This document shows positions 1 through 12,745 of a DNA stretch of 47,006 bases, piece by piece. The DNA is from Terriglobia bacterium (lineage in GTDB: Bacteria > Acidobacteriota > Terriglobia > UBA7540). The position numbers and the translations under genes were made by a program. Each line of letters begins with the position of its first letter. The stretch's first letter is position 1. The stretch is from contig JAIQGH010000039.1 of assembly GCA_020072655.1 (NCBI GenBank), forward strand, positions 1 through 47,006, in the 5' to 3' direction. The notes beneath the pieces are model-generated. The model was not told the origin of the DNA, did no database searches, and was given only the letters and a program-made list of their open reading frames with translations.

Positions 1-568
1 GAGCGCGGATTTCGGCGGCCAGCTCGGGATCGCCCGCGTCCATGAGCGCAAAGGCGTCGTGAATCAGTGCGCGGCAATGGTCCGCCGCAGGACGCGAAGG
101 CGGAAAGATTTCGAATTGAACGGCTGGGTCGGAATCCATGAACCGGGCGGAAAGGCTGAAGATGCGGCGGGCGCCACATTTCCCGCTGCCGCTCTGTCCG
201 TCAAGCTGAAGGATCCGGCGCGAGGCCAAAATAAAAGCGCCCGGTCGGGGGGGAAGACCGGGCGCTCGAAGTCGTGCGGTCGGTGTCTCCTCCTCCCATT
301 TCTCGGCGACCATCCAAAGACCGCTCACCTCAATACCCTTGCGGTCGGTCAGGCCGGTGGTTTCGATTTTGTAACCTTGGCAATTGGGATAGCTGGTGAC
401 GATCAGCAGGCCGATCCAGGCAGCGTTGCGTTTGATGTACTCGATGGTTTTCTCGTGGGTGCGACGGTTAAGTGTACCCACGAAAACGTTGGGGCGCGGC
501 TCGATAAACCAGCGTTTAAGCATTCCGCGAATGGCATCGGGCATGTCGTGGGCGATGATGACCGTCAT
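1..568 (-). CDS. cas2: Cas2 (type I-E), open frame continuing past the window edge; partial
   Basis: Cas2 is the integrase partner of Cas1 that captures spacers into the CRISPR array. The first ~91 codons match the I-E (CT1978-type) Cas2 family: an N-terminal beta strand reading TVIIAHDMPDAIRG, then a RWFIEPRPNVFVG block and a closing GLWMVAEKW strand. The ATG at 568 overlaps the cas1 stop (ATGA), which fixes the start. The frame has no stop codon: it stays open to base 1, adding about 95 codons after the normal family end (~95 aa). This tail includes a hydrophilic, protein-like stretch ending in MDAGDPELAAEIRA. It lacks the ETTG-type motif expected of the known Cas2-DEDDh exonuclease fusions, and I do not recognise it. 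A terminator-like hairpin sits where Cas2 should end. The tail could be a fused domain, a separate gene starting near 139 in the same frame, or chance reading of GC-rich DNA. The Cas2 part is secure; the extension is not. Confidence 0.85.
   Translation of the reverse strand, partial: MTVIIAHDMPDAIRGMLKRWFIEPRPNVFVGTLNRRTHEKTIEYIKRNAAWIGLLIVTSYPNCQGYKIETTGLTDRKGIEVSGLWMVAEKWEEETPTARLRAPGLPPRPGAFILASRRILQLDGQSGSGKCGARRIFSLSARFMDSDPAVQFEIFPPSRPAADHCRALIHDAFALMDAGDPELAAEIRA
228..265 (-). terminator. Rho-independent terminator-like hairpin at the end of the cas operon
   Basis: A perfect 10-bp inverted repeat (GCGCCCGGTC at 237-246 and GACCGGGCGC at 256-265) has a 9-nt loop. On the minus strand it is followed at once by TTTTATTTT (plus 228-236). 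GC-rich stem plus T-tract is the classic intrinsic terminator layout and suits the end of the minus-strand cas transcript. Oddly, it lies inside the still-open cas2 frame. Confidence 0.72.
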
Positions 569-1398
569 GCAAACAGTTCCTCCAAGTCTTTGGGAATTTT
601 TTGGAGCAGCCTTTCCTGTTCGACGCGGTCCTTGAGCAGCGTGCGAACCAGTTCGCCCTTGTCGTTGGGGTTCTGGCGCATGGCCTGAAACGCCGCCGGA
701 AAAGTCGTGATTTCTTTGTAAAGGTCAGCCACATCGTAGATGAACGGTAGCGTGCCGCCTTCGTGGACGAATCCCAGCGACGGCAAGTAACCGAGCGAGC
801 AAACGACGGCCGCGCACAACGCGTAGAGGCTGGCGTTGGCAGCAGAAAGCGCGCGATTGACATTGTCGGCCAGATTCCAGTTCGATTTGTCGTAATTGCG
901 CCCTTTCCAAGTAACCCCGTACTGCTGGCCGAGTTCACTGTACTTGGCGCGCACGCGCAACCCCTCCATGCCGCGCAACTCGGCAATGGAATACGCCTGC
1001 ACATCCACGCCGGGAAACCGGTGGGTAAACATGCGGCGGGCGATCTCGGCGCGCTTCTTCCTATCGGCCCAAGCAGCGGCGTGTTTGCGGGGCATCAAGT
1101 TGTCGTGATTGGGCGTGATGCCGAAGGCGTAGAAGCGCATCCCGTCCTCGCCGATCCAGCAGACGGGGGTATTGGAATCGGCGCAGGCTTTCATGGCCGC
1201 GTGCGTCACCGTGGTGCCCGGCCCGAGCAGCACGGCTGAGAGCGTGGCGACGGGCAGCCGGTACACCATCCGGTCCGCGCCGATCCACTTGATGCTGGAG
1301 TCATCCACTTCCAGCCGGCCGTGTTCGAGGTAAATCGGCGTCCAGCGGTCCTTCGCCGGCGTCAGCGTCTCCAAGGGCGGTTTTTCGAAGATGGGCAT
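565..1398 (-). CDS. cas1: Cas1 (type I-E adaptation integrase)
   Basis: Metal-dependent DNA integrase that, with Cas2, inserts new spacers into the CRISPR array. The 277-aa length is typical. The conserved metal-binding residues are present: Glu145 (RGMEGLRVR), His212 (LGFVHEGG), Asp222 and Asp225 (IYDVADLYK). The N-terminal beta domain carries DRWTPIYLEHGRLEVDD and the LLGPGTTVTH motif typical of I-E Cas1. It starts at ATG 1398, 3 nt after the cas5 stop, and ends overlapping cas2, so adaptation genes are translationally coupled to the Cascade genes. No catalytic residue is missing, so it should be active. Confidence 0.96.
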   Translation of the reverse strand: MPIFEKPPLETLTPAKDRWTPIYLEHGRLEVDDSSIKWIGADRMVYRLPVATLSAVLLGPGTTVTHAAMKACADSNTPVCWIGEDGMRFYAFGITPNHDNLMPRKHAAAWADRKKRAEIARRMFTHRFPGVDVQAYSIAELRGMEGLRVRAKYSELGQQYGVTWKGRNYDKSNWNLADNVNRALSAANASLYALCAAVVCSLGYLPSLGFVHEGGTLPFIYDVADLYKEITTFPAAFQAMRQNPNDKGELVRTLLKDRVEQERLLQKIPKDLEELFA

Positions 1399-1401
1399 GG
1401 A

Positions 1402-2136
1402 TCACACATCCGGAATCTTGCCGACTACGAGATTCACCCGACGAACAGCATAGTCGCGCCCCTCTGCGCTGGAACCTGATGTACCGAAGGAGACCGGTTG
1501 GTCATTGTAAGAGTCCGTCCCCGCGTTGAAGTTCGCAACTTCCTCCAGACGGGTGAATTGTTCGATAGCAGCGTTGCCAATCAATGCGCGTTCAGCTTCT
1601 GGTTGCGTTTTGAACATGCCACGGAAAATCGGTTCGGCTGGGATGCAACTCTTGCGCCCAAACCAGACACCCCAGATGGGGTCTTCGAGCGCAGCGACGG
1701 CGCGCTCTAGCATAAACCGGTCGCCTGCAAGGATAACGCCATAGCGTGCGTCGTTAAGGTATTGGCGGTGGCTGACCGTGGGATTGTCGCATGGCCCTCC
1801 AGATGCCTTGCGTGGGATGAACTGCCGTTGCGTCTTCTTATCGTAGCCACCGCCTGTGGTGTGGAAGTCCTCCAGGCGAAGGACGGGCAGCAGCCCACCC
1901 GCTCTTAGCACATTACGTGGGATGGTAATGCTGCTCATCTTCAACGCCGCCAGCTTAGGGAGCATGTCGCGCTCTTCAGGCGAGCCTTTGGCCAGACCCA
2001 TCGCGGCAGAGATCAGGCCGATGACGCCGCTCTTGGTCGGGTGCAATTCCGTGGTGCGGCGCTGAAACCGGCTGGAAAAGCCCCACGATTGCAGCGGGGC
2101 GTCCAGAAGTAGCGCAAGGTACGCAGTGTCAGACAT
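1402..2136 (-). CDS. cas5e: Cas5 (CasD, Cascade subunit)
   Basis: Cas5e caps the 5' handle of the crRNA in the Cascade complex. The N-terminus MSDTAYLALLLDAPLQSWG is the Cas5 signature. It is followed by RRTTELHPTKSGVIGLISAAMG, the family's helix after the first strand. Near residues 105-140 lies HTTGGGYDKKTQRQF with a YLNDARYGV block, as in other I-E Cas5 proteins. I chose ATG 2136 over an upstream in-frame start at 2187, because the extra residues have no family counterpart and 2136 gives an 8-nt overlap with the cas7 stop. Length 244 aa. The C-terminus (YAVRRVNLVVGKIPDV) is intact. Confidence 0.94.
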   Translation of the reverse strand: MSDTAYLALLLDAPLQSWGFSSRFQRRTTELHPTKSGVIGLISAAMGLAKGSPEERDMLPKLAALKMSSITIPRNVLRAGGLLPVLRLEDFHTTGGGYDKKTQRQFIPRKASGGPCDNPTVSHRQYLNDARYGVILAGDRFMLERAVAALEDPIWGVWFGRKSCIPAEPIFRGMFKTQPEAERALIGNAAIEQFTRLEEVANFNAGTDSYNDQPVSFGTSGSSAEGRDYAVRRVNLVVGKIPDV

Positions 2137-3226
2137 GGCGCAGAATCTCCTCGCAGAATTCGTCGAGCGGCTTGTCCGGAATGGCAATTTCCGCCGACGG
2201 CTTGATGCCCCAGGTTTTCTTCAACTGCTCGTGATGCTCCTTGAGCGCCGCGACAGAGGTGTCTATCAGTCCGCTCTTGGAGGACACCGGTTTTTCAAAA
2301 GCATTAATCAGTTGCAGAGGTTGGCCTTTGTCTTTTACAAGACCGAGCACGTAGCCCGGCATGGTGTGGGCATTCATCGAGTTTTTCCGCGCGCTGGGAA
2401 CAGCGAGAATGGTTGCGCGGAGGAAGGCGTCCACGACCGTTCGGCGGTCCTCCGCCGAGAGCGCACCAAGGTGAGAGTCATCCCCCAACAGCCCGAGATT
2501 CAGCGCGACGTAGCGGTAGTAGACTGCTGAAGTAAACTCCAGCGTTCCCATCATCCCGCTACCCGCCCGATCTTCTTCTTCAACCGTTGGGTCTTCGCCC
2601 TGCCGGTCGTCCACCGCCGTGTAAAAGTCGATGTCGTTGTCGGCGCGATGAGTTGACAAGGCATGACTGAACATCGCCGCCCCTTCCACAGTGAGTGAGT
2701 GGTCCGTGGCCACCATGCGTCCAAAGAGCGCGATATCAGCGGCATCTTTCAGCTTTGCCTCCTGGACCTTGCTCGCGGCGGACTTGATCTTCTTGTCCGA
2801 GGCCTTTGTATCCTTGCTCTCCTTGAGAATCGTGGCCAACTCCTTGCCGATTTCCTCACGTTCGGAGGGTGAAAGAAACATGAGCGTTTTGACTTTGAGA
2901 ATGCCCTTGTTCTTGAATGCGCTCTCGTCGACGGTTGCCAACCCGTCGCAGAACTTCTTGGAAGCCTCTCGCGCTTTGTCAGCCGGAGCACCATGCCGCT
3001 CGGCGGCTTCGGCTATAGGCTGGACGATGAGCTTGCTGCGTTCCCCCTTAAACAACTCCGGACACAGTTCTTTGGCTTGCAGTCGGATCGCCCGCTTCAG
3101 GCACTGGCTGGAAATGCGAGCGCGTGTGACGCCGCCGAACGTCGCCGTCTTGGGCGCCCCCACGTCGTCGCGGTTCAGGCACGAGACGGGGAACGATTGC
3201 AGGATGTGCAGTTCGATGAGTTTCAT
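2129..3226 (-). CDS. cas7e: Cas7 (CasC/Cse4, Cascade backbone)
   Basis: The backbone subunit, six copies of which line the crRNA spacer in type I-E Cascade. The 365-aa protein opens with the family signature: IELHILQSFPVSCLNRDD, then GAPKTATFGGVTRARISSQCLKRAIR (RRM core and thumb region). The middle carries FGRMVATDHSLTVEGAAMFSHALSTHRADNDIDFYTAVDD, and the C-terminal half has ARKNSMNAHTMPGYVLGLV. All are typical of Cas7e. The minus strand shows GAGAGGAA 5 nt before the ATG. It follows cas6e after 31 nt, one of the few non-overlapping junctions in the operon, and overlaps cas5. Confidence 0.96.
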   Translation of the reverse strand: MKLIELHILQSFPVSCLNRDDVGAPKTATFGGVTRARISSQCLKRAIRLQAKELCPELFKGERSKLIVQPIAEAAERHGAPADKAREASKKFCDGLATVDESAFKNKGILKVKTLMFLSPSEREEIGKELATILKESKDTKASDKKIKSAASKVQEAKLKDAADIALFGRMVATDHSLTVEGAAMFSHALSTHRADNDIDFYTAVDDRQGEDPTVEEEDRAGSGMMGTLEFTSAVYYRYVALNLGLLGDDSHLGALSAEDRRTVVDAFLRATILAVPSARKNSMNAHTMPGYVLGLVKDKGQPLQLINAFEKPVSSKSGLIDTSVAALKEHHEQLKKTWGIKPSAEIAIPDKPLDEFCEEILRHV

Positions 3227-3257
3227 GTCAGTTCCTCTCGTTTGATTTGGATCTTCC

Positions 3258-3887
3258 TTATGAGACTGGCGCGATCACCAGCAGGCCGAAGCCGAACGCC
3301 TTGGCCGAGCCGATGCCGCGCGTGAAAGCTTCGTGAAACTTGGCCGGGTCCGTCACCGTCAGCACGCCCTGAAACTCCACGGCACTGTGCAGGCCGTTCT
3401 GCCCGTTCTTCTCAAAATACTCCCTGCCACGGGAAAACGTGCGGAGCTTGGCTTCATCCACAGTGAAGCCGCCATGGTCTCCCTTGCGCTTGATCCACTC
3501 TACAAGTTCCTCGCGCTTCCCCAACGGGATGCGCCGACCGTTTTTCGTCAACGAGCCGTCGGACCGTTCCTTGGAGACTTTCTTCGTGGGGTTCGCGCAG
3601 AGTTGGAACGCATACTGGCTGCGCGTGAAATACGTTTCCGGAATGGGTTTCGTCTTCCAGCTTTCTGCGTCCCCCGGACACCAATCGGGCCGCACCGGTT
3701 GCGCGGGTGAGACGATCAGCAATCGGAAGCCCTCCGGGCGCTGGTCGAGCCGCGTCAGAAACTCGCGCCGCTCACCATTGCGGCCGGGGAAGGCCTTCCA
3801 TACTGCCTGATGCCAGTCGTAGCAATCGCGCAAGCGCAGCCGGGCGGCGGTGGCGAAATCGAGGATGACTTGGGTGAGATGGGTCAT
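3258..3887 (-). CDS. cas6e: Cas6e (CasE, pre-crRNA endoribonuclease)
   Basis: Cleaves the pre-crRNA within repeats and stays bound to the 3' hairpin in Cascade. His26 in YDWHQAVWKAFPG lies where the catalytic His of E. coli CasE (CasE His20) falls. The C-terminus GIGSAKAFGFGLLVIAP is the glycine-rich loop typical of Cas6. Length 209 aa. I chose ATG 3887, giving a 4-nt ATGA overlap with cse2, rather than the upstream start at 3989, which would run inside cse2. Its place between cse2 and cas7 is unusual: in E. coli and S. thermophilus I-E loci it follows cas5. Confidence 0.93.
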   Translation of the reverse strand: MTHLTQVILDFATAARLRLRDCYDWHQAVWKAFPGRNGERREFLTRLDQRPEGFRLLIVSPAQPVRPDWCPGDAESWKTKPIPETYFTRSQYAFQLCANPTKKVSKERSDGSLTKNGRRIPLGKREELVEWIKRKGDHGGFTVDEAKLRTFSRGREYFEKNGQNGLHSAVEFQGVLTVTDPAKFHEAFTRGIGSAKAFGFGLLVIAPVS

Positions 3888-4390
3888 GGCGTGGCCTCCG
3901 ATACACTCACAGCAGCGGGCTCTTCGCTTCCCGGCGAACCCCAGTATTCCTGCGCCCAGCGGGCTTTCACGTTGTCGCCCCAGTAACAAAGATCAGCGAA
4001 AAGCTCCTCGTAGTTGATCGGTATCCCTTTGGCTCTTGCGGCGAGAACTACGGGACGCAGTCGCTCGCAAATCTCGTCGCGGTCGCAAGAGAGCAGGCGT
4101 CGGAATCGGCCATCGAACGATTCGTTCTGTTTTTTGAGCCGCAGGCAGGTCGTTCCGAGATTGCCGTTGTCGGTTTCGTCAGGATGGTAAGCGAACAGGC
4201 CGACAACGGCTTCGATGCGGGGATTGCCGATGCCGCCCACGCGCGCCAGCAAGGGCCAAGCGCGGGGGAGTTTGGTGGGACTCAACGCGCAGCGCAGATC
4301 AGCCATCGCACCCCGGTCGTTCTTGAGTCGGCGTAGGTGGGCCAACAAGCGTGCGGCGGCTTCCTTGGGATCGAATTGATCGGCACTCAT
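3884..4390 (-). CDS. cse2: Cse2 (CasB, Cascade small subunit)
   Basis: The alpha-helical small subunit, present twice in the belly of type I-E Cascade, where it stabilises the R-loop. The 168-aa sequence shows the family pattern: an N-terminal LLAHLRRLKNDRGAMADLRCALSPTKLPRAWPLL region, then the NLGTTCLRLKKQ and FDGRFRRLLSCDRDEICERLRPVV helices. It starts at ATG 4390, 2 nt after the cse1 stop, and ends overlapping cas6e. The acidic tail of about 15 residues looks like an unstructured extension. Confidence 0.92.
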   Translation of the reverse strand: MSADQFDPKEAAARLLAHLRRLKNDRGAMADLRCALSPTKLPRAWPLLARVGGIGNPRIEAVVGLFAYHPDETDNGNLGTTCLRLKKQNESFDGRFRRLLSCDRDEICERLRPVVLAARAKGIPINYEELFADLCYWGDNVKARWAQEYWGSPGSEEPAAVSVSEATP

Positions 4391-4392
4391 GC

Positions 4393-5946
4393 TTAAACCT
4401 CCTTTTCGGTTCCAACCTCGGCTGATTCGGCGGGCGCAGCGAACAATGTCTTCAGCCCCAAAGCATACGCGCGTATCTGGCGTGGTGTCTCACGCGTGCA
4501 GGCCCTTTCATACGCCGCACGGGCGGCGCGCCAGAGGGATTGTCCCCAAGCGGTCTTGTTCCACTCGGATTTCAGCCCAAGGCTTTCGGGAGCGGCCGCA
4601 ACCTCCAGCAAGCGCGGCAAGGCACTTTCGATGTCCGTCCAGAACTGGGCGGCGGCGTTGCTCTGGATTTGCTGGCGCCGGTTTTTCATTTCGGGCCGGT
4701 CAAGATTGTCACCGAGTTCCTTGTGGTAAACTGAGGCGGCCCGCTTGACGCGAAACGCCATGGTTTCCGCCAACCGTACTCCAGCTTCGTAAACCATCTG
4801 GCTAGGTTCTTTCAGCATCGCGGAAGGGACATGGAACACGGACTCCGTCGTATCCAGCGGTTTGGCTTTGTTGGCGACCAGGCCCCCCACCCAAAGATCG
4901 AATGCTTCCTGGTCGTCAGCGATGTTCTGCAGCGCGGCAGGGCCGCCGGGATTTTGGCCGACAGCTTTGACGGTCAGGGCGTGCAACTCGCGCCACGCGG
5001 CCTCGTCGATCGAAGCCGGTAATAGGACACGCGTAGGCTGGCCTTTCACGGTCCGGGTGACAATCGTAGCGGAAGGCTCGCGCCATCCATCAGCATAGGA
5101 CTCATATTCCAGCCCGTTGGCGAGGATGAGAGATCGGCAATCATCCGCAAGCCAAATTGCGCGGGTTAGCGGAACAAGTCGACCTAAGTAAGTGCGGTTG
5201 GAGTTCCGCACGGCTTCGGCGTCGGCAAGTCGCTGGGGCATCAACTCCCAGACCGCTCTGCCCCAGGAGTCCTGCCCGAAGAACTGCTCGGCCTGCCGTT
5301 TGGTCATAAGGTTTTTGTGCAGAGTGGCGAGTAGATTGTCGCCTCGGAGCAGCGCGTGCAACATCCCGCCGGCAAGGCACGGCGCATGGTCGCTCGATCC
5401 TTTGCCGGCCGTTTCCTTACCGTTCCATAACGCCACTCCGATGCGACCACCGGGAGAAAAACACTGGAATGTCGTCAGCATCAAAGCGAGTTCGCCAGGC
5501 GTGAAAGCCCGCTCTGAGCCACCCGCGTTGTCAAAAAGCGTTGTGTTGTTGCCCGTGGCCAGCGCGAGATCGAGCTTGCTGGTCGAGTTGCCTTCATCGT
5601 CATCATCGCCATTGGACTTGGTCGTAGCCTTCTTTAAGTTGGCAGCCTGCGAGAAGCGCTGGCCGTTGCCGAACAACTCGAAGGCGTGTCGCCAACGATT
5701 GAGGTATTCGAGCGCCGACGGCACTATGCGTGGTCGGCACGCCTCCCAGTGGTCTTGGTCGCTTGGGCCGTCGAGCGCCGCCTGCGCGATGCAAATCAGC
5801 AGCCGCACCAGGGCGATGCGTTCATGCGGGCGGACAGCAAGGTCTCGAATCTCATGGCCTCGCTCGAACGCTTCGCGCAGGCTGACGGTTCCCGGTTTGC
5901 CCTCATTCCACACAATCGGAATCCAAGCTTCAGTCGTAAGATTCAT
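4393..5946 (-). CDS. cse1: Cse1 (CasA, Cascade large subunit, PAM recognition)
   Basis: Large Cascade subunit that reads the PAM and recruits Cas3. The N-terminus MNLTTEAWIPIVWNEGKPG with SLREAFERG is characteristic. A glycine-containing loop (FSPGGRIGVALWNGK, about residues 160-175) corresponds to the PAM-sensing region. The C-terminal four-helix bundle is seen in the WTDIESALPRLLEVAA to AWGQSLWRAARAAYERAC part. About 517 aa. ATG 5946 overlaps the end of cas3 by 17 nt; upstream ATGs at 5967 and 5958 are possible but add only a few residues without family support. Confidence 0.94.
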   Translation of the reverse strand: MNLTTEAWIPIVWNEGKPGTVSLREAFERGHEIRDLAVRPHERIALVRLLICIAQAALDGPSDQDHWEACRPRIVPSALEYLNRWRHAFELFGNGQRFSQAANLKKATTKSNGDDDDEGNSTSKLDLALATGNNTTLFDNAGGSERAFTPGELALMLTTFQCFSPGGRIGVALWNGKETAGKGSSDHAPCLAGGMLHALLRGDNLLATLHKNLMTKRQAEQFFGQDSWGRAVWELMPQRLADAEAVRNSNRTYLGRLVPLTRAIWLADDCRSLILANGLEYESYADGWREPSATIVTRTVKGQPTRVLLPASIDEAAWRELHALTVKAVGQNPGGPAALQNIADDQEAFDLWVGGLVANKAKPLDTTESVFHVPSAMLKEPSQMVYEAGVRLAETMAFRVKRAASVYHKELGDNLDRPEMKNRRQQIQSNAAAQFWTDIESALPRLLEVAAAPESLGLKSEWNKTAWGQSLWRAARAAYERACTRETPRQIRAYALGLKTLFAAPAESAEVGTEKEV

Positions 5947-8527
5947 CGGACTCCTCATGAAGCGCACGCGGCAAACGCTCGCGTTCGATGATGATACCCT
6001 GATCGGGGTGATATGAAAGCCCTGTCTGCTGTTCGTCGCCGGACCAGCGGATGTTGCCAGCCGGTTGCAGCAGTCCGGTGGCGGTGGGTTGCGAAACGTG
6101 ATTGGTCAACCAGCCCGGTGGCTTAGTGAGACCGGTCGCAACGGCCCAGCGCGGCACACGGACGAGATTGCGATGGATGGCTTTGACGGCGTCAAAGTTC
6201 CAGTCGCGGTCATGGGCTGTGATTACCGCGCCGTCGAGCAGGCAGAGACGCGCCGAGTGCCGGTCAAGCGAGGTGATCTCCGTCGCCAGAAGCAATTGGG
6301 CCATCGGGTAGGTACTGAAACGGGTCTGAATGCCTTCCTCGTCCGGCAAGGCCGGGTTGTTCCAGATGGTGGTGGCGTTGAGGGCTTGCCGGGCCATTTT
6401 CTCTTTTTGCTTCTCCAACTGTTCTCGCAGTTCCTGCCAGGCGGGCGGCTCGGCGGCGGTGGGGTCGGCGTAGGTGGCTTCGAGAATCGGGCGGATGTCG
6501 TCGGGCAACGTGATCGTCGCTCTCCCGCGCCACTGTTGGAGCGAACGCAGTAGGATGTAGGGCGCATAGACACGTGCGCTCTTGCCCAGAGCCCGGCGAA
6601 GTTCCTTCTCGCTCGCGTCGCGCAGTGAGGCATCATCCGAGTGCGGCATCTGAATCCAGACTTCGGGTTGTGGACAGGGACGGAGGGGCCGGTCGTGGCG
6701 CCACAGACGGCCGATCCGTTGTAATAGCATGTCGGTCGGAGCGAGGTCCGTAATTAGCAGGTCGGCGTCGATATCCACACTCTGCTCGGCAACTTGGGTT
6801 GAAACCAAGATGCAGCCGTTGGGCCGATTAGTGGAGTCCTTGCCGAGTCGGATCATCCAGTCGGTTTCGAGCTGTTCGCGGCGGAAAAAAGGAAAGCGAG
6901 AATGCAGCAGCGCGACGCTGGGACCGCCTTGGAAATTGGCGCTCTGAAGTGCCCGGTAGGTCTCTTGGGCCTCATCGACCGTGTTGTGAATCCACAGCAA
7001 ACATTCGCCGTCGGAGGCGCGATCGATGGCCTCTTCCACCGGCAAGGCAGCGGAGACGTTGCGTATCTGAATCGTCTTCGCTGGCGGTGCCTCGCACGTG
7101 CTCTCGATGAGTGAGCTTGCCACACCGGAAACTAGCGGATAACCCGCGCTGAGCGGTTGCTGGTCGGCCAGTCCGAGCAACTCGTGGCGTCGCTTTCCCG
7201 TGAGAGTGGCGGACAAGATGATGACGGTGCATTGCAGTTCGCGCAGCCGTTTCGCCATCGCGTCAATGAGCGTGCTGGTGTAAAGATCGTAGGTGTGCAC
7301 CTCATCGAGGATCACCACCTTTCCGGCAAGTCCGAACTGCCGGACGAAGAAATGCTTGGCCGCCACAATACCCAGCAACGCTTGGTCTATCGTGCCAACA
7401 CCAAACGGCGCGAGCAGCGCCCGCTTAGCTGACGCGAACCAGGAGCGCCCGGCGTGGACATGATTCCTTGCTTCCTCGTCATTCGCGATGGCCGGGGACA
7501 GTTGTGCTGGCGGGTCGGTCTCGGCAAGCCAGGAGGCGCTGTGGGCGAGCCGCACTGCTGCCGGGCTAGCGCAAATCCGATCAACGAACGGCTGCACACG
7601 CAGATGAATCCGGTTACTGGTCACTTGTGTCGGCAACGCGAAATACAACCCGGTCGCTTTTCCTGTCGCGATGAGTCGATGCGCTGCCGCCAGCGCCGCC
7701 TCCGTCTTGCCGCAGCCCATCGGCCCTTCGATGACGTAAGTGCCTGGCTCTCCCACCACCTGGTCGGTTGTTGTCTGTAAGCTGTTCGCCTGCGGGATTT
7801 CAGGGAATAACTCAGCGAATTCGGTCAATTGCCTTACTTCAACTGATCTCCAGTTGATCGTGGCCAACGCCGTCTGCGCTCGGCGACGCCGCTCCGACAC
7901 GTCCCAACGCGCATCGAGTGGGAAGTGCCTCTCGTCTGAACCGATCCAGTCGGCAATCGTAATCAGCCCGGCCACGAACCAGATTGTTGCATCGCCGGGC
8001 GACTGATCCGGCAACGGTCCGAATTCCCTCATGAGTTCCGCCGCCAATCGGCAGCGTTCCTCTTCCCACGGTTCCTGCACTTGCACCCGTTCACCTTTGA
8101 TCCGTCCATGGTGCGTACCGACGGCCGCCGCCCAGATTTGGAGTCGAGGGCTTTGGAGCAACTCCTGCACGGTAAATTGGCTGATCCTGGCGTGGTCAGA
8201 CTCCCGCATGCTCCAGCCTTCCTTCAGCGCACGATCCCTCAGCGCGTGATGCACCAACCACGCTTCGTTCTTCCGTTGAAACCCCGGCGAGACCTTGCCG
8301 ATGTCATGCAGCGCGGCAAGAGTGGCGGCGCCGGGCGGGATGAGCATTTGGAGTTGGGGCGGGAGCAAGGCCAGCAGCGCTTCGGCGACGCATCCGACGT
8401 TCAGGCAGTGGTCGCGGACGCTGATGCCGGGCCGGCCATCTTCGGTCGTCTTCGCCCAACATTCCTCGTGGCGCAAAACCTTGGCCGTCGCGAAGGACTT
8501 TCTGTCTCCTCTCGGTGGAGCTGGCAC
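5930..8527 (-). CDS. cas3: Cas3 (HD nuclease-helicase fusion)
   Basis: Cascade-recruited nuclease-helicase that degrades invader DNA. The N-terminal HD domain has His40 (SVRDHCLNVG), His74-Asp75 (LHDIGK) and THHGR near 138-142. The SF2 helicase follows with Walker A GPMGCGKTEA (~270), DEVH box (VVILDEVHTYD), SAT motif (ILSATL) and motif VI QRIGRLWRHDRP. Length up to 865 aa, normal for an HD-Cas3 fusion. The longest frame begins at GTG 8527 without a good ribosome site. A GAGGAGA a little downstream suggests that initiation at an internal TTG (about codon 18) is also possible. First gene of the cas operon; the 264 nt upstream carry two perfect inverted repeats. Confidence 0.94.
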   Translation of the reverse strand: MPAPPRGDRKSFATAKVLRHEECWAKTTEDGRPGISVRDHCLNVGCVAEALLALLPPQLQMLIPPGAATLAALHDIGKVSPGFQRKNEAWLVHHALRDRALKEGWSMRESDHARISQFTVQELLQSPRLQIWAAAVGTHHGRIKGERVQVQEPWEEERCRLAAELMREFGPLPDQSPGDATIWFVAGLITIADWIGSDERHFPLDARWDVSERRRRAQTALATINWRSVEVRQLTEFAELFPEIPQANSLQTTTDQVVGEPGTYVIEGPMGCGKTEAALAAAHRLIATGKATGLYFALPTQVTSNRIHLRVQPFVDRICASPAAVRLAHSASWLAETDPPAQLSPAIANDEEARNHVHAGRSWFASAKRALLAPFGVGTIDQALLGIVAAKHFFVRQFGLAGKVVILDEVHTYDLYTSTLIDAMAKRLRELQCTVIILSATLTGKRRHELLGLADQQPLSAGYPLVSGVASSLIESTCEAPPAKTIQIRNVSAALPVEEAIDRASDGECLLWIHNTVDEAQETYRALQSANFQGGPSVALLHSRFPFFRREQLETDWMIRLGKDSTNRPNGCILVSTQVAEQSVDIDADLLITDLAPTDMLLQRIGRLWRHDRPLRPCPQPEVWIQMPHSDDASLRDASEKELRRALGKSARVYAPYILLRSLQQWRGRATITLPDDIRPILEATYADPTAAEPPAWQELREQLEKQKEKMARQALNATTIWNNPALPDEEGIQTRFSTYPMAQLLLATEITSLDRHSARLCLLDGAVITAHDRDWNFDAVKAIHRNLVRVPRWAVATGLTKPPGWLTNHVSQPTATGLLQPAGNIRWSGDEQQTGLSYHPDQGIIIERERLPRALHEESDESYD

Positions 8528-8791: not shown

Positions 8792-10138
8792 TCAGGCAAG
8801 CTCGCCATCGATGATCTCGCGGACCAGTTTGCAGACTTCCTTGGTGGTCTCATTGCCGGATAACTCGGCTACCAAGCCGCGCCGGACGGCCTCTTTCAGG
8901 TGGGCGGCAAATTCGCTGTCCCAATAGTCTTCGTCTGAGATTTCGCCCTCGCGCCTCAATTCCAGCACACAGCTCGAAACCTCAGCAATCCCGTGCTGAA
9001 TGAGACTGGCCTTCCGGGCCTGGCGGTCCTTCTCTGCCTGCCGCTTTTCGATCTCTGCGCTCGCATCTCGGACGGTTGGCTCCAGAGCTTCCTCGCCTTC
9101 AGCTTCGGAAGTGCCAAGAGGGAGTTCGGCTAGTATCTCCGCACACTCCCGGCGAAGCCGGGTTTCGTCCCGGTCGGTTCGGCTCCAAGGTAGCTCGCGG
9201 ATTGCCCAATCGAGCAGTCGGGTATCCAGTAGCCGCTTCCCAACCGCCAGACGCACGGGCTCTACAGCCTCTTGTACTGTCACGCGAATTTCGCACACGT
9301 CTGCAAAGCTATCTAGGCGCCGAAGGGCCTCCCGGATCGCAACCGTCGCCCGCACCTTTTCAGCCTCTGTCGCAAGATAGCGTATGCTGCTCAATGCCTC
9401 TTCCGTGAGCGTCTGACGGCGTTCCTGTGCGTCCCGCTCGGCTCGGAAGGGTTCGACCAAGGCTTCAAGGCTGCGGGCAAGAATGGCGCCCATGCGAGGT
9501 TCCTCGGCGGGCTGCCGCTTTTCGATCTCGCCCTCCAAGCCCCCTAGCACTTCCTTGCGCTGAGTGGCTGAAAGCCATCGGTACTCGTAGGTGGATAGAG
9601 CCTGGCTCGCTTTCGTCTGCCATCGGCAACGGAAAGCGGCCAATGCCTGCTTGGACTCGCGTTTCTCCCGCTCCTCGGCTTGTTCCCGCTCCTGACGCGC
9701 CCTCTGCTGGGCTCTCTCAACCTCCAGCTGCTCCCGCTCCAGTTCAATCTCTGCCTCGCGTTGGACGGCCTCATCTTCGCGGGCCTGGGCCTCGGCCTCC
9801 AGTCTGTCTGCTTCCTTTTGCTCTTCCGCCCGTAGCTTCTCCAGCTCCCGCCGTGCACGGTATTCTTGGGCTTCAAGAGTCAACTCCTCCACCCGCTCAC
9901 GGCGATTCTGTAGGACCGGTGACGGCTCACGGACAGGCCGGGGCTGCCGTCGCTGCTCCCGTAAGGCTTCGATGCTCTCGGCCACTATTCGAAGGTGGCC
10001 GCCTGGAGTTCGGAATCCTTGCACGTGGCCGTCAGCCGCCATGCGTTTGAGCGTAGGGATCGATACCCCTAGCAGCATCGCGGCCTCACTAACGGAGCAA
10101 GACTCGGCGCGGGATCGGATTTTCACGGATTCTTTCAC
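8792..10138 (-). CDS. Excisionase-type HTH protein with long charged coiled coil, function unknown
   Basis: 448 aa. Residues ~13-60 form a winged helix-turn-helix of the MerR/excisionase type (SVSEAAMLLGVSIPTLKRMAADGHVQGFRTPGGHLRI). Residues ~80-200 are an uninterrupted, highly charged coiled coil rich in Glu, Arg and Gln. The C-terminal ~240 residues are helical and match no family I can name. The HTH predicts DNA binding; a long coiled coil suggests oligomerisation or scaffolding. It reads toward the cas operon on the same strand, 264 nt before cas3. Direct repeats TTTCACGG (10121-10128 and 10133-10140) overlap its start and could be its own binding sites. The start is GTG 10138 or GTG 10126; neither has a strong ribosome site. 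It could regulate the island, the cas genes, or excision. Confidence 0.75.
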   Translation of the reverse strand: MKESVKIRSRAESCSVSEAAMLLGVSIPTLKRMAADGHVQGFRTPGGHLRIVAESIEALREQRRQPRPVREPSPVLQNRRERVEELTLEAQEYRARRELEKLRAEEQKEADRLEAEAQAREDEAVQREAEIELEREQLEVERAQQRARQEREQAEEREKRESKQALAAFRCRWQTKASQALSTYEYRWLSATQRKEVLGGLEGEIEKRQPAEEPRMGAILARSLEALVEPFRAERDAQERRQTLTEEALSSIRYLATEAEKVRATVAIREALRRLDSFADVCEIRVTVQEAVEPVRLAVGKRLLDTRLLDWAIRELPWSRTDRDETRLRRECAEILAELPLGTSEAEGEEALEPTVRDASAEIEKRQAEKDRQARKASLIQHGIAEVSSCVLELRREGEISDEDYWDSEFAAHLKEAVRRGLVAELSGNETTKEVCKLVREIIDGELA

Positions 10139-10278: not shown

Positions 10279-10740
10279 TCATCGTCGGTCGGTCCCGTGC
10301 TGGCGTCGGCGTTGCCAGATTTCCTGGGCAAACTCTTGCCGTTTTGACTTCGGTGTTTCGTGGATGATCTTTCCGCCCGCATCGTGCGCGCCTCGCTGGT
10401 GGGCCATAGCCGCCTGGACATACTGGGCGAGATTGCCCGCGCCGGGATTGTACTGGCGCGTGCGCCTTCCTTGGCCTGCCCTGGCCGCCGCGATTCCAAG
10501 GCGTGTGTTACAGCTCTTGCAGAGCCATCGCAGGTTCTCGCGTGATCCGTTCGACTCGTCGCCGTCAATGTGATCAATGACCAGAAAGCGGGTCGATCCG
10601 CACAAGGCACACTTGGGGGGCAGGGGCGGGCGACACTCGGGCGCACTGGCTCTATACCGCTTCGCCCGGTCAGTGATCTCGTGAGCTGGCTTTCGCCATG
10701 ACGCGCCACACGCTTGGCGCGCTACTCTTCCCCCTGGTTG
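10279..10740 (-). CDS. HNH endonuclease, start codon missing or frameshifted
   Basis: The frame carries a zinc-type HNH core: CALCG, then LVIDHIDGDESNGSRENLRWLCKSCNTRLG, giving the two CxxC pairs, the DH motif and the Asn. HNH proteins of this kind cut DNA and are common in phages and islands. The frame is open from 10740 but has no ATG, GTG or TTG before TTG 10605, which would delete the first zinc Cys pair. A neighbouring frame has an ATG at 10699 (MAKASSRDH then stop), so one base lost or gained around 10670-10690 would restore a full-length gene starting there. It is therefore a frameshifted gene, a sequencing error, or initiation at an unusual codon. The C-terminus after the core is basic and helical. 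Confidence 0.6.
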   Translation of the reverse strand, partial: QPGGRVARQACGASWRKPAHEITDRAKRYRASAPECRPPLPPKCALCGSTRFLVIDHIDGDESNGSRENLRWLCKSCNTRLGIAAARAGQGRRTRQYNPGAGNLAQYVQAAMAHQRGAHDAGGKIIHETPKSKRQEFAQEIWQRRRQHGTDRR

Positions 10741-11036
10741 TCATCCTCTTCTTCGGATTCGCCAGCAAGGTCGGCGATTTCCTCAAGGCGGTCCTGCAAA
10801 CTTTCGTTCTCTTCCTCCAGTTCCTTAATTCGCTCGACCAATTCACGTCGCGTTTGTACGGGCATTTTCCTTACTCCTTTCGGATTCACTACCTGAATGT
10901 GTCGCCTCTCGGCGTACTCCTGCAAAGATTCGTCGTCAATCTCGTCGGCTCGATCCACGTCGCCCAAGACATCGCGGGTGAATCTAACCGCCTTGGCCTT
11001 TCGGGACTCAAGCTGCTTACGGGTCAGAGTCTTCAT
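10722..11036 (-). CDS. Small acidic coiled-coil protein, unknown function
   Basis: 104 aa from ATG 11036 (MKTLTRKQLESRK). The middle contains the motif IQVVNPKGVRKMPVQTRRELVERI, then a predicted coiled coil (ELEEENESLQDRLEEI) and a very acidic tail (ESEEEDDNQGEE). I recognise no family. It sits between two other small island genes on the same strand, and its stop overlaps the region where the HNH gene should begin. An upstream in-frame start at 11081 exists, but the extra residues look untranslated. The acidic tail resembles those of DNA-mimic or nucleic-acid-associated small proteins, but that is only an impression. Confidence 0.6.
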   Translation of the reverse strand: MKTLTRKQLESRKAKAVRFTRDVLGDVDRADEIDDESLQEYAERRHIQVVNPKGVRKMPVQTRRELVERIKELEEENESLQDRLEEIADLAGESEEEDDNQGEE

Positions 11037-11108
11037 GGTTCTAAGGTAAATGGGACAGTGAATGGCCGTCCAGCCACGCAACTTGGCGAGATTTTCGGAT
11101 ACAGAAAA

Positions 11109-11513
11109 TCAACCAATATTGCGAGGTGAGTCATCCCTATCGGGCCGCCTGCGCCTTCGGGAAATGGCCGCACGCAACCCTTTTTCGGCTAGGTAGCGTC
11201 CATAAGTATCCAAGTTGTCGTAGCCTAGGATTTGTAGCCGGAGTACGTCCTTGACGGTTTTTCCTTGCTCGACCATTTGGACGGCGGCATCTAGTCGAGG
11301 ATCGTTCGGGCGTCCCCGCCTTGGCGGAAGTGCCTGCCGGATTACTCTCAGAACTTGTTTCTTGAACCCTGCTGGGTCGCGGGCAAGCCGGTCTTGGAAG
11401 CGGCTCTTGAGCCCCTTGGCGAACTGGCTTACAGTATCCTCAACGTCCTGGGCGGAAACTGCTCTTCTGCCCTTGCCCAAGAGCCATCGAAACTTCGCGG
11501 TTTTGTACTCCAT
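11109..11513 (-). CDS. Basic protein of unknown function next to the attachment site
   Basis: 134 aa, strongly basic (ends RRRRRPDRDDSPRNIG). Around residues 65-100 it has GRPNDPRLDAAVQMVEQGKTVKDVLRLQI, which resembles a helix-turn-helix of the kind found in recombinase or transposase accessory proteins, though I cannot assign a family. No tyrosine or serine recombinase active-site motif is visible, so it is not an integrase. It is the first gene of the minus-strand island cassette, about 110 bp from the tRNA-Gly fragment. A perfect inverted repeat lies directly before its start (11516-11536), suggesting autoregulation. Confidence 0.6.
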   Translation of the reverse strand: MEYKTAKFRWLLGKGRRAVSAQDVEDTVSQFAKGLKSRFQDRLARDPAGFKKQVLRVIRQALPPRRGRPNDPRLDAAVQMVEQGKTVKDVLRLQILGYDNLDTYGRYLAEKGLRAAISRRRRRPDRDDSPRNIG

Positions 11514-11515
11514 TT

Positions 11516-11536
11516 GTACTCCATTAACAGGAGTAC
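11516..11536. promoter_or_regulatory. Inverted repeat directly upstream of the 134-aa island gene
   Basis: GTACTCC (11516-11522), 7-nt spacer, GGAGTAC (11530-11536). A further GGAGTAC copy lies inside the start of the gene (minus 11511-11505). A palindrome two bases from the start codon fits an autorepressor operator. Confidence 0.45.
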
Positions 11537-11625
11537 TGGAGTAGCCCCTTGAAACTAGGAGAGTTGTAATCGCCGGAAATCAACGCTATAGACCCTATGT
11601 TCTGTATTTTCAATTTAGGTTCAAT

Positions 11626-11670
11626 TTCCCAAGCTGGACGTCGCGGGTTCGATCCCCGTCCCCCGCTCCA
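11626..11670 (+). other. 3' fragment of tRNA-Gly(CCC): island attachment-site scar
   Basis: Forty-five bases match the 3' part of a tRNA-Gly: anticodon loop TTCCCAA with anticodon CCC at 11628-11630, 3' anticodon stem, variable loop, T stem-loop GCGGG-TTCGATC-CCCGT, acceptor strand CCCCCGC, discriminator T (usual for Gly) and encoded CCA. There is no D arm, 5' acceptor strand or 5' anticodon stem upstream, so this is not a tRNA gene. A duplicate beginning at the anticodon loop and running to CCA is the standard attL/attR product of tRNA-targeting integrases. Its orientation places the intact tRNA, and the rest of the element, to the left of base 1. Confidence 0.8.
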
Positions 11671-11785
11671 AAGCCAGAAGCCGCCCGACTTTGATCTGTT
11701 CCCTCGATTCGAAGCTGTCGTTTGCGGGCCGCGCCATTTAGGGTAGACTGTCGCCGCTTCACCATCCTCTTCAGGGGGCGATTAC

Positions 11786-12745
11786 ATGGCTCGTCGCAAG
11801 GAGATCATCGTCGGCGTGGATATGGGCGGCACTAGCTTGCGCGCTCTGGTTGTGAACGAGGAAAACCGAATTCTGGCGGTGGGAAAGACTCCTACCGTTC
11901 GCGCGCAGAAGCCTGAGAACCTGATCGAAGATATTGCTGCCCAGGTTTTCGATGCGGTGGAATCGGCGGGGCTGCGGCGCGGTGACCTGCATGCAGTGAG
12001 CGTCGGCGCGCCCGGGGCGGTGGACCCCTCCAGCGGCTTGGTGCATGAGGCCCCGAACCTCGGCTGGAAGGACGTGAAGCTCGGCCCGAAGCTCAGCAAG
12101 CTGCTGGGTGTTCCGGTCTTGGTCGAGAACGACGTCAACGTGGGCGTGGTCGGCGAGCACACGCTGGGGGCCGGCCGGGGTGTCGAGGAACTCGTCGGAA
12201 TCTTTATCGGCACCGGGATTGGCGGAGGCATCATCTCGCGCGGTGAGCTCTATGAAGGATGTCGCGGGGCGGCGGGTGAGATTGGCCACCTGATCCTCGA
12301 GGTCGGCGGCCCGCGTTGCGGGTGCGGCCGGCGCGGCTGCGCGGAGGCCCTGGCCAGCCGGACGGCCATGGAGCGCGACGTCCGCGCGGCGATCCGACAG
12401 GGTGCCAAGAGCTGCGTCCTGGAAATGATGAGGGAGCGGAAAAAGGAGCGTATGACCAGCAGCATCATCGCCCGGGCGCTCAAGGAGAAGGACCGCGTGG
12501 TGCACGAAGTGTTGCGACGCGCGGAGCATTACCTGGGGATTCTGGTGGCGAGCGTCCACGGTGCTGATCAGGTCCGCAAAGACCAGGCCCCCCTTCATGA
12601 AATTGATCTTGCCGTAAAATTCCAGGGCCTTGGGGGAGAGGAGATCCCACCCCAGCCCGGTGAGACGCTGGCCCGCTGGGCGCCGTGGTGCTCGCGCGGA
12701 AGCGCCTGCGCTCTTAGTCAGAGGGATTCCATGAAGACCAGGTAG
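11786..12745 (+). CDS. ROK-family sugar kinase, C-terminus replaced (truncated)
   Basis: Glucokinase-type ROK protein: ATP-dependent phosphorylation of glucose or a related sugar. It has the N-terminal phosphate loop [12 protein letters not shown], the catalytic Asp in VENDVNVG, the glycine-rich [10 protein letters not shown] and the zinc motif H...CGCGRRGC ([21 protein letters not shown]). The ribosome site is an AGGGGG 8 nt before ATG 11786. Homology ends at about residue 256 (YLGILVASV), where ROK proteins continue into an NLLNPE..VLGGG segment. The remaining ~63 codons are unrelated and derive partly from an inverted glgA fragment. About 65 C-terminal residues of the second subdomain are lost, so the product is probably inactive. 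This could be a genuine rearrangement or a misassembly. Confidence 0.8.
12554..12664 (-). pseudogene. glgA: Inverted internal fragment of glycogen synthase (glgA)
   Basis: On the minus strand these 111 bases read [18 protein letters not shown] followed by [18 protein letters not shown], the block just before the NTVSPTY motif of bacterial glycogen synthases (GT5). Nothing on either side continues the glgA frame: the left flank is the ROK gene in reverse and the right flank is unrelated. It is an isolated scrap of about 37 codons joined head-on into the ROK gene. Confidence 0.65.

What the first reader, a model, noticed from the sequence alone, without database searches (positions are those of the whole stretch)
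11600..11690. tRNA-Gly(CCC) 3' fragment marks the right end of an island carrying the CRISPR-Cas locus
The duplicated piece begins in the anticodon loop and ends at CCA, exactly the pattern left by tyrosine integrases. Everything to the left (cas operon, HTH, HNH, unknown genes) then belongs to one mobile element, and housekeeping genes begin right after. No integrase is in the window, so it should lie to the left. This suggests the whole I-E system moves by site-specific integration.
Basis: partly seen in the sequence, partly recalled or inferred. Interest (0 to 1): 0.75.

Follow-up and report, generated by a model that had tools for sequence, protein, structure and literature searches.

The report
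CRISPR-carrying genomic island at tRNA-Gly
In this acidobacterium the piece of a glycine tRNA gene is the right-hand scar of a mobile DNA island that carries a whole CRISPR-Cas (type I-E) immune system, and relatives carry the same kind of island at the same tRNA with a different defence gene instead.

Summary
A 46-bp copy of the 3' part of tRNA-Gly(CCC) lies at window 11626-11671. The only intact tRNA-Gly(CCC) in the genome is on another contig (C182:5147-5221). It shares those 46 bp exactly and has a tyrosine integrase and an Xis-like gene directly beside its 3' end. Past them C182 runs through replication-type genes into a type I-E CRISPR array. Array, repeat and orientation fit the cas operon, which runs off the left end of the window contig. 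The right 100 bp inside the scar and the left arm are conserved among related elements; the DNA outside diverges straight after CCA. The best evidence is a sibling element complete on one contig in another genus (NFUN01000059.1). It has the same int, xis, HTH, HNH, two small end genes, arm and att pair in the same order, but a type ISP/IIG restriction enzyme where ours has cas. So cas is cargo. Its int family sits at tRNA-Gly across Acidobacteriota (37 of 43 loci). This is a new member of a known kind; the precedent is Vibrio GI-24, an excisable I-E island. Open points: an unsequenced gap between the two contigs, no exact empty site, and no evidence that the island moves today.

The parts
11626..11671 (+). 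attR scar: 46-bp copy of the 3' part of tRNA-Gly(CCC), anticodon loop to CCA
   Evidence: 46/46 identity to intact tRNA-Gly(CCC) at C182:5147-5221; same scar in sibling elements
11563..11625 (+). right-end arm of the element next to the core (attP arm side)
   Evidence: Conserved in G051, G010 (two scars), G003, with part of it in G014, G009, G017; sequence diverges immediately after CCA
11504..11543 (+). probable integrase arm-type sites: TGTACTCCATT-type repeats, two direct and one inverted; matching repeats at the left end, C182:5094-5112
   Evidence: Sequence; conserved in sibling alignments on both ends; function inferred
11109..11513 (-). o134: conserved right-end gene of the element, C-terminal part predicted to be helical, HTH-like
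   Evidence: 69% (G051) and 52-54% (G010) identical homologues next to the scar; weak AF2 model, pLDDT 62
10722..11081 (-). o119: conserved right-end gene, coiled-coil-like
   Evidence: 68% in G051, 60% partial in G017
10279..10605 (-). HNH endonuclease-like gene
   Evidence: PF13392 1e-5 and PF01844 1.8e-4, both above cut-off; 80% in G051
8792..10138 (-). HTH448: HTH_17 DNA-binding protein with long charged middle region
   Evidence: PF12728 2.9e-7; 73% in G051 only
5930..8527 (-). cas3 (HD + helicase), cargo
   Evidence: NCBIfam cas3_core 4.6e-59, cas3_HD 1.7e-19
4393..5967 (-). cse1/casA, cargo
   Evidence: TIGR02547 7.7e-40
3884..4390 (-). cse2/casB, cargo
   Evidence: TIGR02548 4.1e-20
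3258..3989 (-). cas6e, cargo (the ORF start may lie downstream)
   Evidence: TIGR01907 8.7e-41
2129..3226 (-). cas7e, cargo
   Evidence: TIGR01869 6.1e-84
1402..2187 (-). cas5e, cargo
   Evidence: TIGR01868 5.6e-33
565..1398 (-). cas1e, cargo
   Evidence: TIGR03638 6.9e-96
268..568 (-). cas2e, cargo; the operon ends here with a strong hairpin at about 233-267
   Evidence: TIGR01873 1.6e-18; hairpin z-score -4.1
1..232 (-). start of a further, unidentified ORF (MDSDPAVQFEIFPP...) running off the contig; the unsequenced gap to C182 begins here
11786..12745 (+). chromosomal flank: ROK-family kinase gene, outside the element
   Evidence: Orthologues in most family genomes; same scar-to-ROK spacing in G003

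Best explanation
The fragment is attR of an integrated genomic island (integrative element) in an acidobacterium. The island entered by site-specific recombination between its attP and the 3' half of tRNA-Gly(CCC). Its tyrosine integrase (C182:4002-5093) did this and an HTH-type Xis (C182:3743-4012) would direct excision. Integration left a complete tRNA gene at the integrase end (attL) and a 46-bp copy at the other end (attR, window 11626-11671). The island reads: tRNA-Gly(attL) - int - xis - primase-like genes - ORF - type I-E CRISPR array - [sequence gap] - cas2 cas1 cas5 cas7 cas6 cse2 cse1 cas3 - HTH - HNH - o119 - o134 - arm - attR - ROK kinase. At least 16.8 kb are sequenced. The complete I-E system sits as cargo in a slot that in a sibling element holds a type ISP/IIG restriction enzyme. 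Shown: both att copies, integrase and Xis homology, matching array, conserved ends, sibling without cas, family-wide tRNA-Gly specificity. Inferred: the direct joining of the two contigs, the recombination chemistry, replication and transfer after excision, and present activity.
For: Exact 46-bp repeat, two copies in the genome, in direct orientation once C182 is turned. Int PF00589 1.3e-14 and phrog_1 6.7e-53; Xis HTH_17 2.2e-7, right beside the tRNA 3' end. I-E array at the outer end of C182 (7 full repeats, 61-bp period; only such array in the genome). Its repeat is 27/28 identical to that of G185, whose cas1 is 87% identical, and it has the orientation relative to cas that the join requires. 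Complete sibling in G051 = NFUN01000059.1: int 82%, xis 84%, HTH 73%, HNH 80%, o119 68%, o134 69%, arm 88%, two att copies 100%, same order; cargo is a type ISP/IIG enzyme. Ends conserved inside, divergent outside, in 8 scars. 37 of 43 integrase loci have the tRNA-Gly 3' part within 400 bp of the int end. In the same-genus genome G001 the tRNA-Gly is uninterrupted, with no second copy, no Int and no Cse1. Cse1 is in 2 of 39 family genomes and 3 of 396 phylum genomes searched.
Against: C182 and the window contig are not joined by sequence. The window end continues into an unidentified ORF after cas2, so the gap is not only array. No genome with tRNA-Gly followed directly by the ROK gene was found, so the exact empty site is missing. 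Base composition does not mark the island (GC 0.598 and 0.584 against 0.609 +/- 0.014). Related scars can be stacked in tandem (G010), so more than one element could lie between the two copies.
Confidence: 0.9

Rival explanations
1. The scar and the backbone genes (HTH-HNH-o119-o134) belong to one element, but the cas operon and its array are an older neighbour, or a second element stacked in tandem, so that the I-E system would not move with this integrase.
For: Tandem scars exist in G010. There is an assembly gap, and an unexplained ORF follows cas2. Close cas relatives elsewhere are chromosomal without this element.
Against: The array is on the integrase contig and the cas operon on the attR contig, with compatible repeat and orientation, so the cas unit lies between the two att copies. 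No third att copy was found in the genome. In G051 the same backbone on both sides encloses a single cargo slot.
Confidence: 0.07
2. The fragment is only a relic: an old scar or a degenerate tRNA duplication unrelated to the cas region.
For: Such relics exist: G003 keeps a broken integrase between two att copies, and G010 has a 3.9-kb remnant.
Against: 46/46 identity to the intact gene, an intact integrase and Xis, and an arm 88% identical to that of a complete sibling.
Confidence: 0.03
3. A refinement rather than an opposite: the element is not a plain genomic island but a phage satellite or a mobilisable element that depends on a helper for transfer.
For: Replication-type genes in the three siblings read closely: primase/helicase-like here, O/DnaA_N-like in G051, Prim-Pol in G052. 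HNH near one end. Small size (10 kb in G051). No transfer genes recognised.
Against: No capsid, terminase or portal gene recognised in the sequenced parts. Right-end genes have no relative in phage collections. Integrase found in only 3 viral contigs.
Confidence: 0.25

Closest known systems
Vibrio cholerae GI-24, a 17-kb genomic island with a type I-E CRISPR-Cas system (PMC6360697)
   Same: Integrase plus att sites bounding a small island whose main cargo is a complete I-E system with its array; excision of the circle was shown by PCR for GI-24 (paper read)
   Different: Other phylum; GI-24 sits between two protein genes, this one at tRNA-Gly(CCC). Here sibling elements with exchanged defence cargo are seen; excision not tested
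Type II-B and III-A CRISPR-Cas islands at tRNA loci in Vibrionaceae (PMC6360697)
   Same: CRISPR-Cas on an island with an integrase at a tRNA locus
   Different: Other CRISPR types, other tRNAs, other lineages
P4-like satellites and P2-like phages with anti-phage hotspots (PMC9122126, seen as title and abstract only)
   Same: Constant mobile backbone with a slot of exchangeable defence systems
   Different: No evidence here for phage helper functions or packaging; backbone genes unrelated as far as searched
Campylobacter ICE with a CRISPR-Cas9 system (PMC8743540, title and abstract only)
   Same: CRISPR-Cas as cargo of an integrative element
   Different: Conjugative element with Cas9; no conjugation genes were recognised in this island

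Membership tests
tRNA-targeting genomic island / integrative element | direct repeat of the tRNA 3' part at both ends, one copy completing the tRNA | tested here: met
tRNA-targeting genomic island / integrative element | tyrosine integrase adjacent to one att site | tested here: met
   PF00589, phrog_1; about 55 bp from the tRNA 3' end
tRNA-targeting genomic island / integrative element | element ends conserved between copies while flanks differ | tested here: met
tRNA-targeting genomic island / integrative element | empty site in a relative | tested here: inconclusive
   G001 tRNA-Gly is uninterrupted and shares part of the left flank, but its right flank is not the ROK gene in the contig
tRNA-targeting genomic island / integrative element | excision to a circle | not testable with these tools
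   needs reads or PCR
Type I-E CRISPR-Cas | cas3, cse1, cse2, cas7, cas5, cas6e, cas1e, cas2e present and open | tested here: met
   NCBIfam matches for all eight
Type I-E CRISPR-Cas | array of about 28-29-nt repeats with 32-nt spacers | tested here: met
   61-bp period, 7 full repeats on C182
Type I-E CRISPR-Cas | array adjacent to cas2 | tested here: inconclusive
   assembly gap and an extra ORF between them
Phage satellite (PICI/P4-like) | packaging or helper-interference genes | tested here: inconclusive
   none recognised by Pfam or PHROGs in the sequenced parts; no viral relatives of HTH448 or o134
ICE | conjugation genes | tested here: inconclusive
   none recognised in the sequenced parts; gap remains

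The most novel reading that the evidence does not exclude
Acidobacteriota harbour a dedicated family of small tRNA-Gly(CCC)-specific integrative elements. Their fixed backbone (Int, Xis, a swappable replication gene, HTH-HNH-o119-o134 right end) serves as a chassis for one exchangeable immune system each, up to a whole adaptive CRISPR-Cas system, possibly used against competing elements for the same site.
Probability: 0.35. Interest if true: 0.6.

Novelty: new member of a known kind. Interest (0 to 1): 0.45.

Why it matters
It shows in a soil phylum with hardly any genetics how a complete adaptive immune system becomes mobile: within a defined island with both att sites, integrase and Xis identified. 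A sibling island with the same backbone carries another defence system, which makes the 'defence cargo slot' directly visible. I-E is rare in this lineage (2 of 39 family genomes), so such islands are a plausible route of its gain.

Tried and rejected
Base composition as an island marker: not distinctive. Exact empty site: ROK loci of relatives carry no tRNA-Gly next to them; G020 has a HEAT-repeat gene between tRNA and ROK. Bridging the contig gap by searching the window's left end and the ORF there: no second hit. Spacer targets: two seeds in IMG/VR gave nothing, and spacers against all fetched loci gave nothing above chance. Viral origin of the right-end genes: no relatives. Structure of the primase-like protein: model useless, pLDDT 39; o134 model weak; no fold search was made on either. 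First HNH scan used the wrong frame and was repeated. A first integrase alignment with a wrong reference was discarded.

Full report
WHAT WAS CLAIMED. A 3' fragment of tRNA-Gly(CCC) at 11600-11690 marks the right end of an island that holds the CRISPR-Cas locus; an intact tRNA and an integrase should lie to the left.

OBSERVATION. The fragment is at 11626-11671, from the anticodon loop (TTCCCAA) to the acceptor end. The window is one contig (C7) of a 209-contig, 4.36-Mb draft genome. In that genome the inner 28-mer occurs exactly twice: here and inside an intact tRNA-Gly(CCC) at C182:5147-5221, minus strand; 46 of 46 bases agree.

THE LEFT END. On C182 the tRNA 3' end faces a tyrosine integrase gene (4002-5093, PF00589 1.3e-14, phrog_1 6.7e-53). 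Before it come an HTH_17 Xis-like gene (3743-4012), a gene weakly like a primase zinc domain (3042-3746), a primase/helicase-like gene (1392-2804, phrog_10514 1.5e-6) and an unknown ORF (521-1363). The contig begins in a CRISPR array: repeat GTTCTCCCCACGCACGTGGGGATGGTCCG, period 61, seven full repeats, the only copies in the genome.

WHY C182 AND THE WINDOW BELONG TOGETHER. First, the two att copies are in direct orientation only if C182 is turned and placed left of the window, as needed for an integrated element. Second, the array is type I-E-like and the window holds a complete I-E operon, cas2 to cas3, that runs off its left end. The repeat differs by one base in 28 from that of G185, whose cas1 is 87% identical, and the array has the same orientation relative to cas as in G185 and G021. 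Third, a sibling element has homologues of both arms on one contig (next paragraph). The junction itself is not sequenced. After cas2 there is a strong hairpin and then the start of an unidentified ORF that leaves the contig, so the gap holds more than array.

THE SIBLING. G051 contig C125 (public record NFUN01000059.1, Acidobacteria subdivision 13 MAG; the other integrase relatives are Terriglobia, Acidiferrales and Bryobacterales) carries: intact tRNA-Gly(CCC) - int (82%) - xis (84%) - O/DnaA_N-like replication gene - small regulator-like ORF - unknown ORF - 1143-aa type ISP/IIG restriction enzyme - HTH448 (73%) - HNH (80%) - o119 (68%) - o134 (69%) - arm (88%) - 44-bp att core (100%). It is about 10 kb, on one contig, without cas. 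Order and orientation equal those of the composite C182 + window map. Hence int/xis and HTH-HNH-o119-o134-arm-att are the backbone, and cas, like the restriction enzyme, is cargo.

THE ENDS. Eight right scars aligned (own, G051, G010 twice, G003, G014, G009, G017) share the core and the DNA on its element side (TATTTTCAATC.A...TTTCCCAAGCTGG) and diverge directly after CCA. Left ends share tRNA + TTTCAACAACTT and then arm-type repeats. TGTACTCCATT-type repeats occur at both ends in own, G051 and G010. This is the pattern of attL/attR with core and arm sites; that the integrase binds them is inference.

THE FAMILY. Integrase relatives were found in 40 genome contigs, all Acidobacteriota, and 3 viral contigs. 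In 37 of 43 the tRNA-Gly 3' part lies within 400 bp of the int end; five of the six exceptions are truncated integrases or contig ends, L137 is a true exception. In the family, 10 of 39 genomes have it at E below 1e-60. Cargo differs: type ISP/IIG R-M in G051 and (split) G052; type III R-M with a DISARM-like helicase beside the right scar of a 48-kb region in G010. G003 has a broken integrase between two att copies, 116 bp before ROK, the same spacing as here (115 bp), so the same chromosomal junction was used there. G010 has two scars in series.

CONTROLS. In the only other genome of the same genus held (G001), tRNA-Gly is uninterrupted, there is no second copy, no integrase and no Cse1. It shares part of the left flank, but the contig does not reach ROK, so an exact empty site was not found. 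Cse1 at this similarity is rare: 2 of 39 family genomes, 3 of 396 in the phylum sample. The other carriers found lie in surroundings without this element, so the operon is not tied to the element; it was picked up by it or left by it. GC content does not separate island from chromosome.

The fragment is present in relatives without cas, but there it belongs to sibling elements with the same arms, so it supports an element family rather than refuting mobility. An intact tRNA-Gly does exist.

MECHANISM. Most likely: integrase-mediated recombination at the anticodon-loop/T-arm segment of tRNA-Gly(CCC), restoring the tRNA; Xis-assisted excision; replication with its own primase-like genes; transfer by unknown means. 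Shown: anatomy and family conservation. Inferred: chemistry, replication, transfer, present activity.

KNOWN OR NEW. A small integrase-bearing island with a complete I-E system and proven excision is known: GI-24 of V. cholerae; CRISPR islands at tRNA loci are known in Vibrionaceae (PMC6360697). The integrase/backbone family at tRNA-Gly(CCC) in Acidobacteriota, with exchangeable immune cargo, was not met in the papers searched (three searches, subscription papers not held). I file it as a new member of a known kind.

Noticed in passing
window 1-267 (-): After cas2 a strong terminator-like hairpin and then the start of an unidentified ORF (MDSDPAVQFEIFPPSRP...) that runs off the contig; no match in 38 other family genomes. 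In G021 and G185 the array follows cas2 directly.
   Followed up: partly
window 12556-12745: The ROK kinase matches its relatives only to about residue 257; the same-genus relative's C-terminal residues reappear in another frame at 12664-12708, so the C-terminus is deleted or rearranged.
   Followed up: partly
window 268-1398: cas1 and cas2 are 83-88% identical to those of G021 and G185 while cas5, cas7 and cse1 are only 50-80% identical: adaptation and interference modules may have different histories.
   Followed up: no
L076-L079 (G010:C18:128212-197349): tRNA-Gly to ROK interval of 69 kb with two tRNA-Gly scars in series, a 48-kb region with ParB and type III R-M, and a 3.9-kb remnant: stacked elements at one site.
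   Followed up: partly
L158 12080-12295: A 37% relative of o134 lies about 0.9 kb beyond tRNA-Gly on an IMG/VR contig with the same integrase family.
   Followed up: no
L141 3226-4270: Two relatives of the integrase in opposite orientation on both sides of one tRNA-Gly(CCC).
   Followed up: no
L004 5312-5476: Remnant (75% over 55 aa) of the GH116-like gene that stands intact left of tRNA-Gly in G001.
   Followed up: partly
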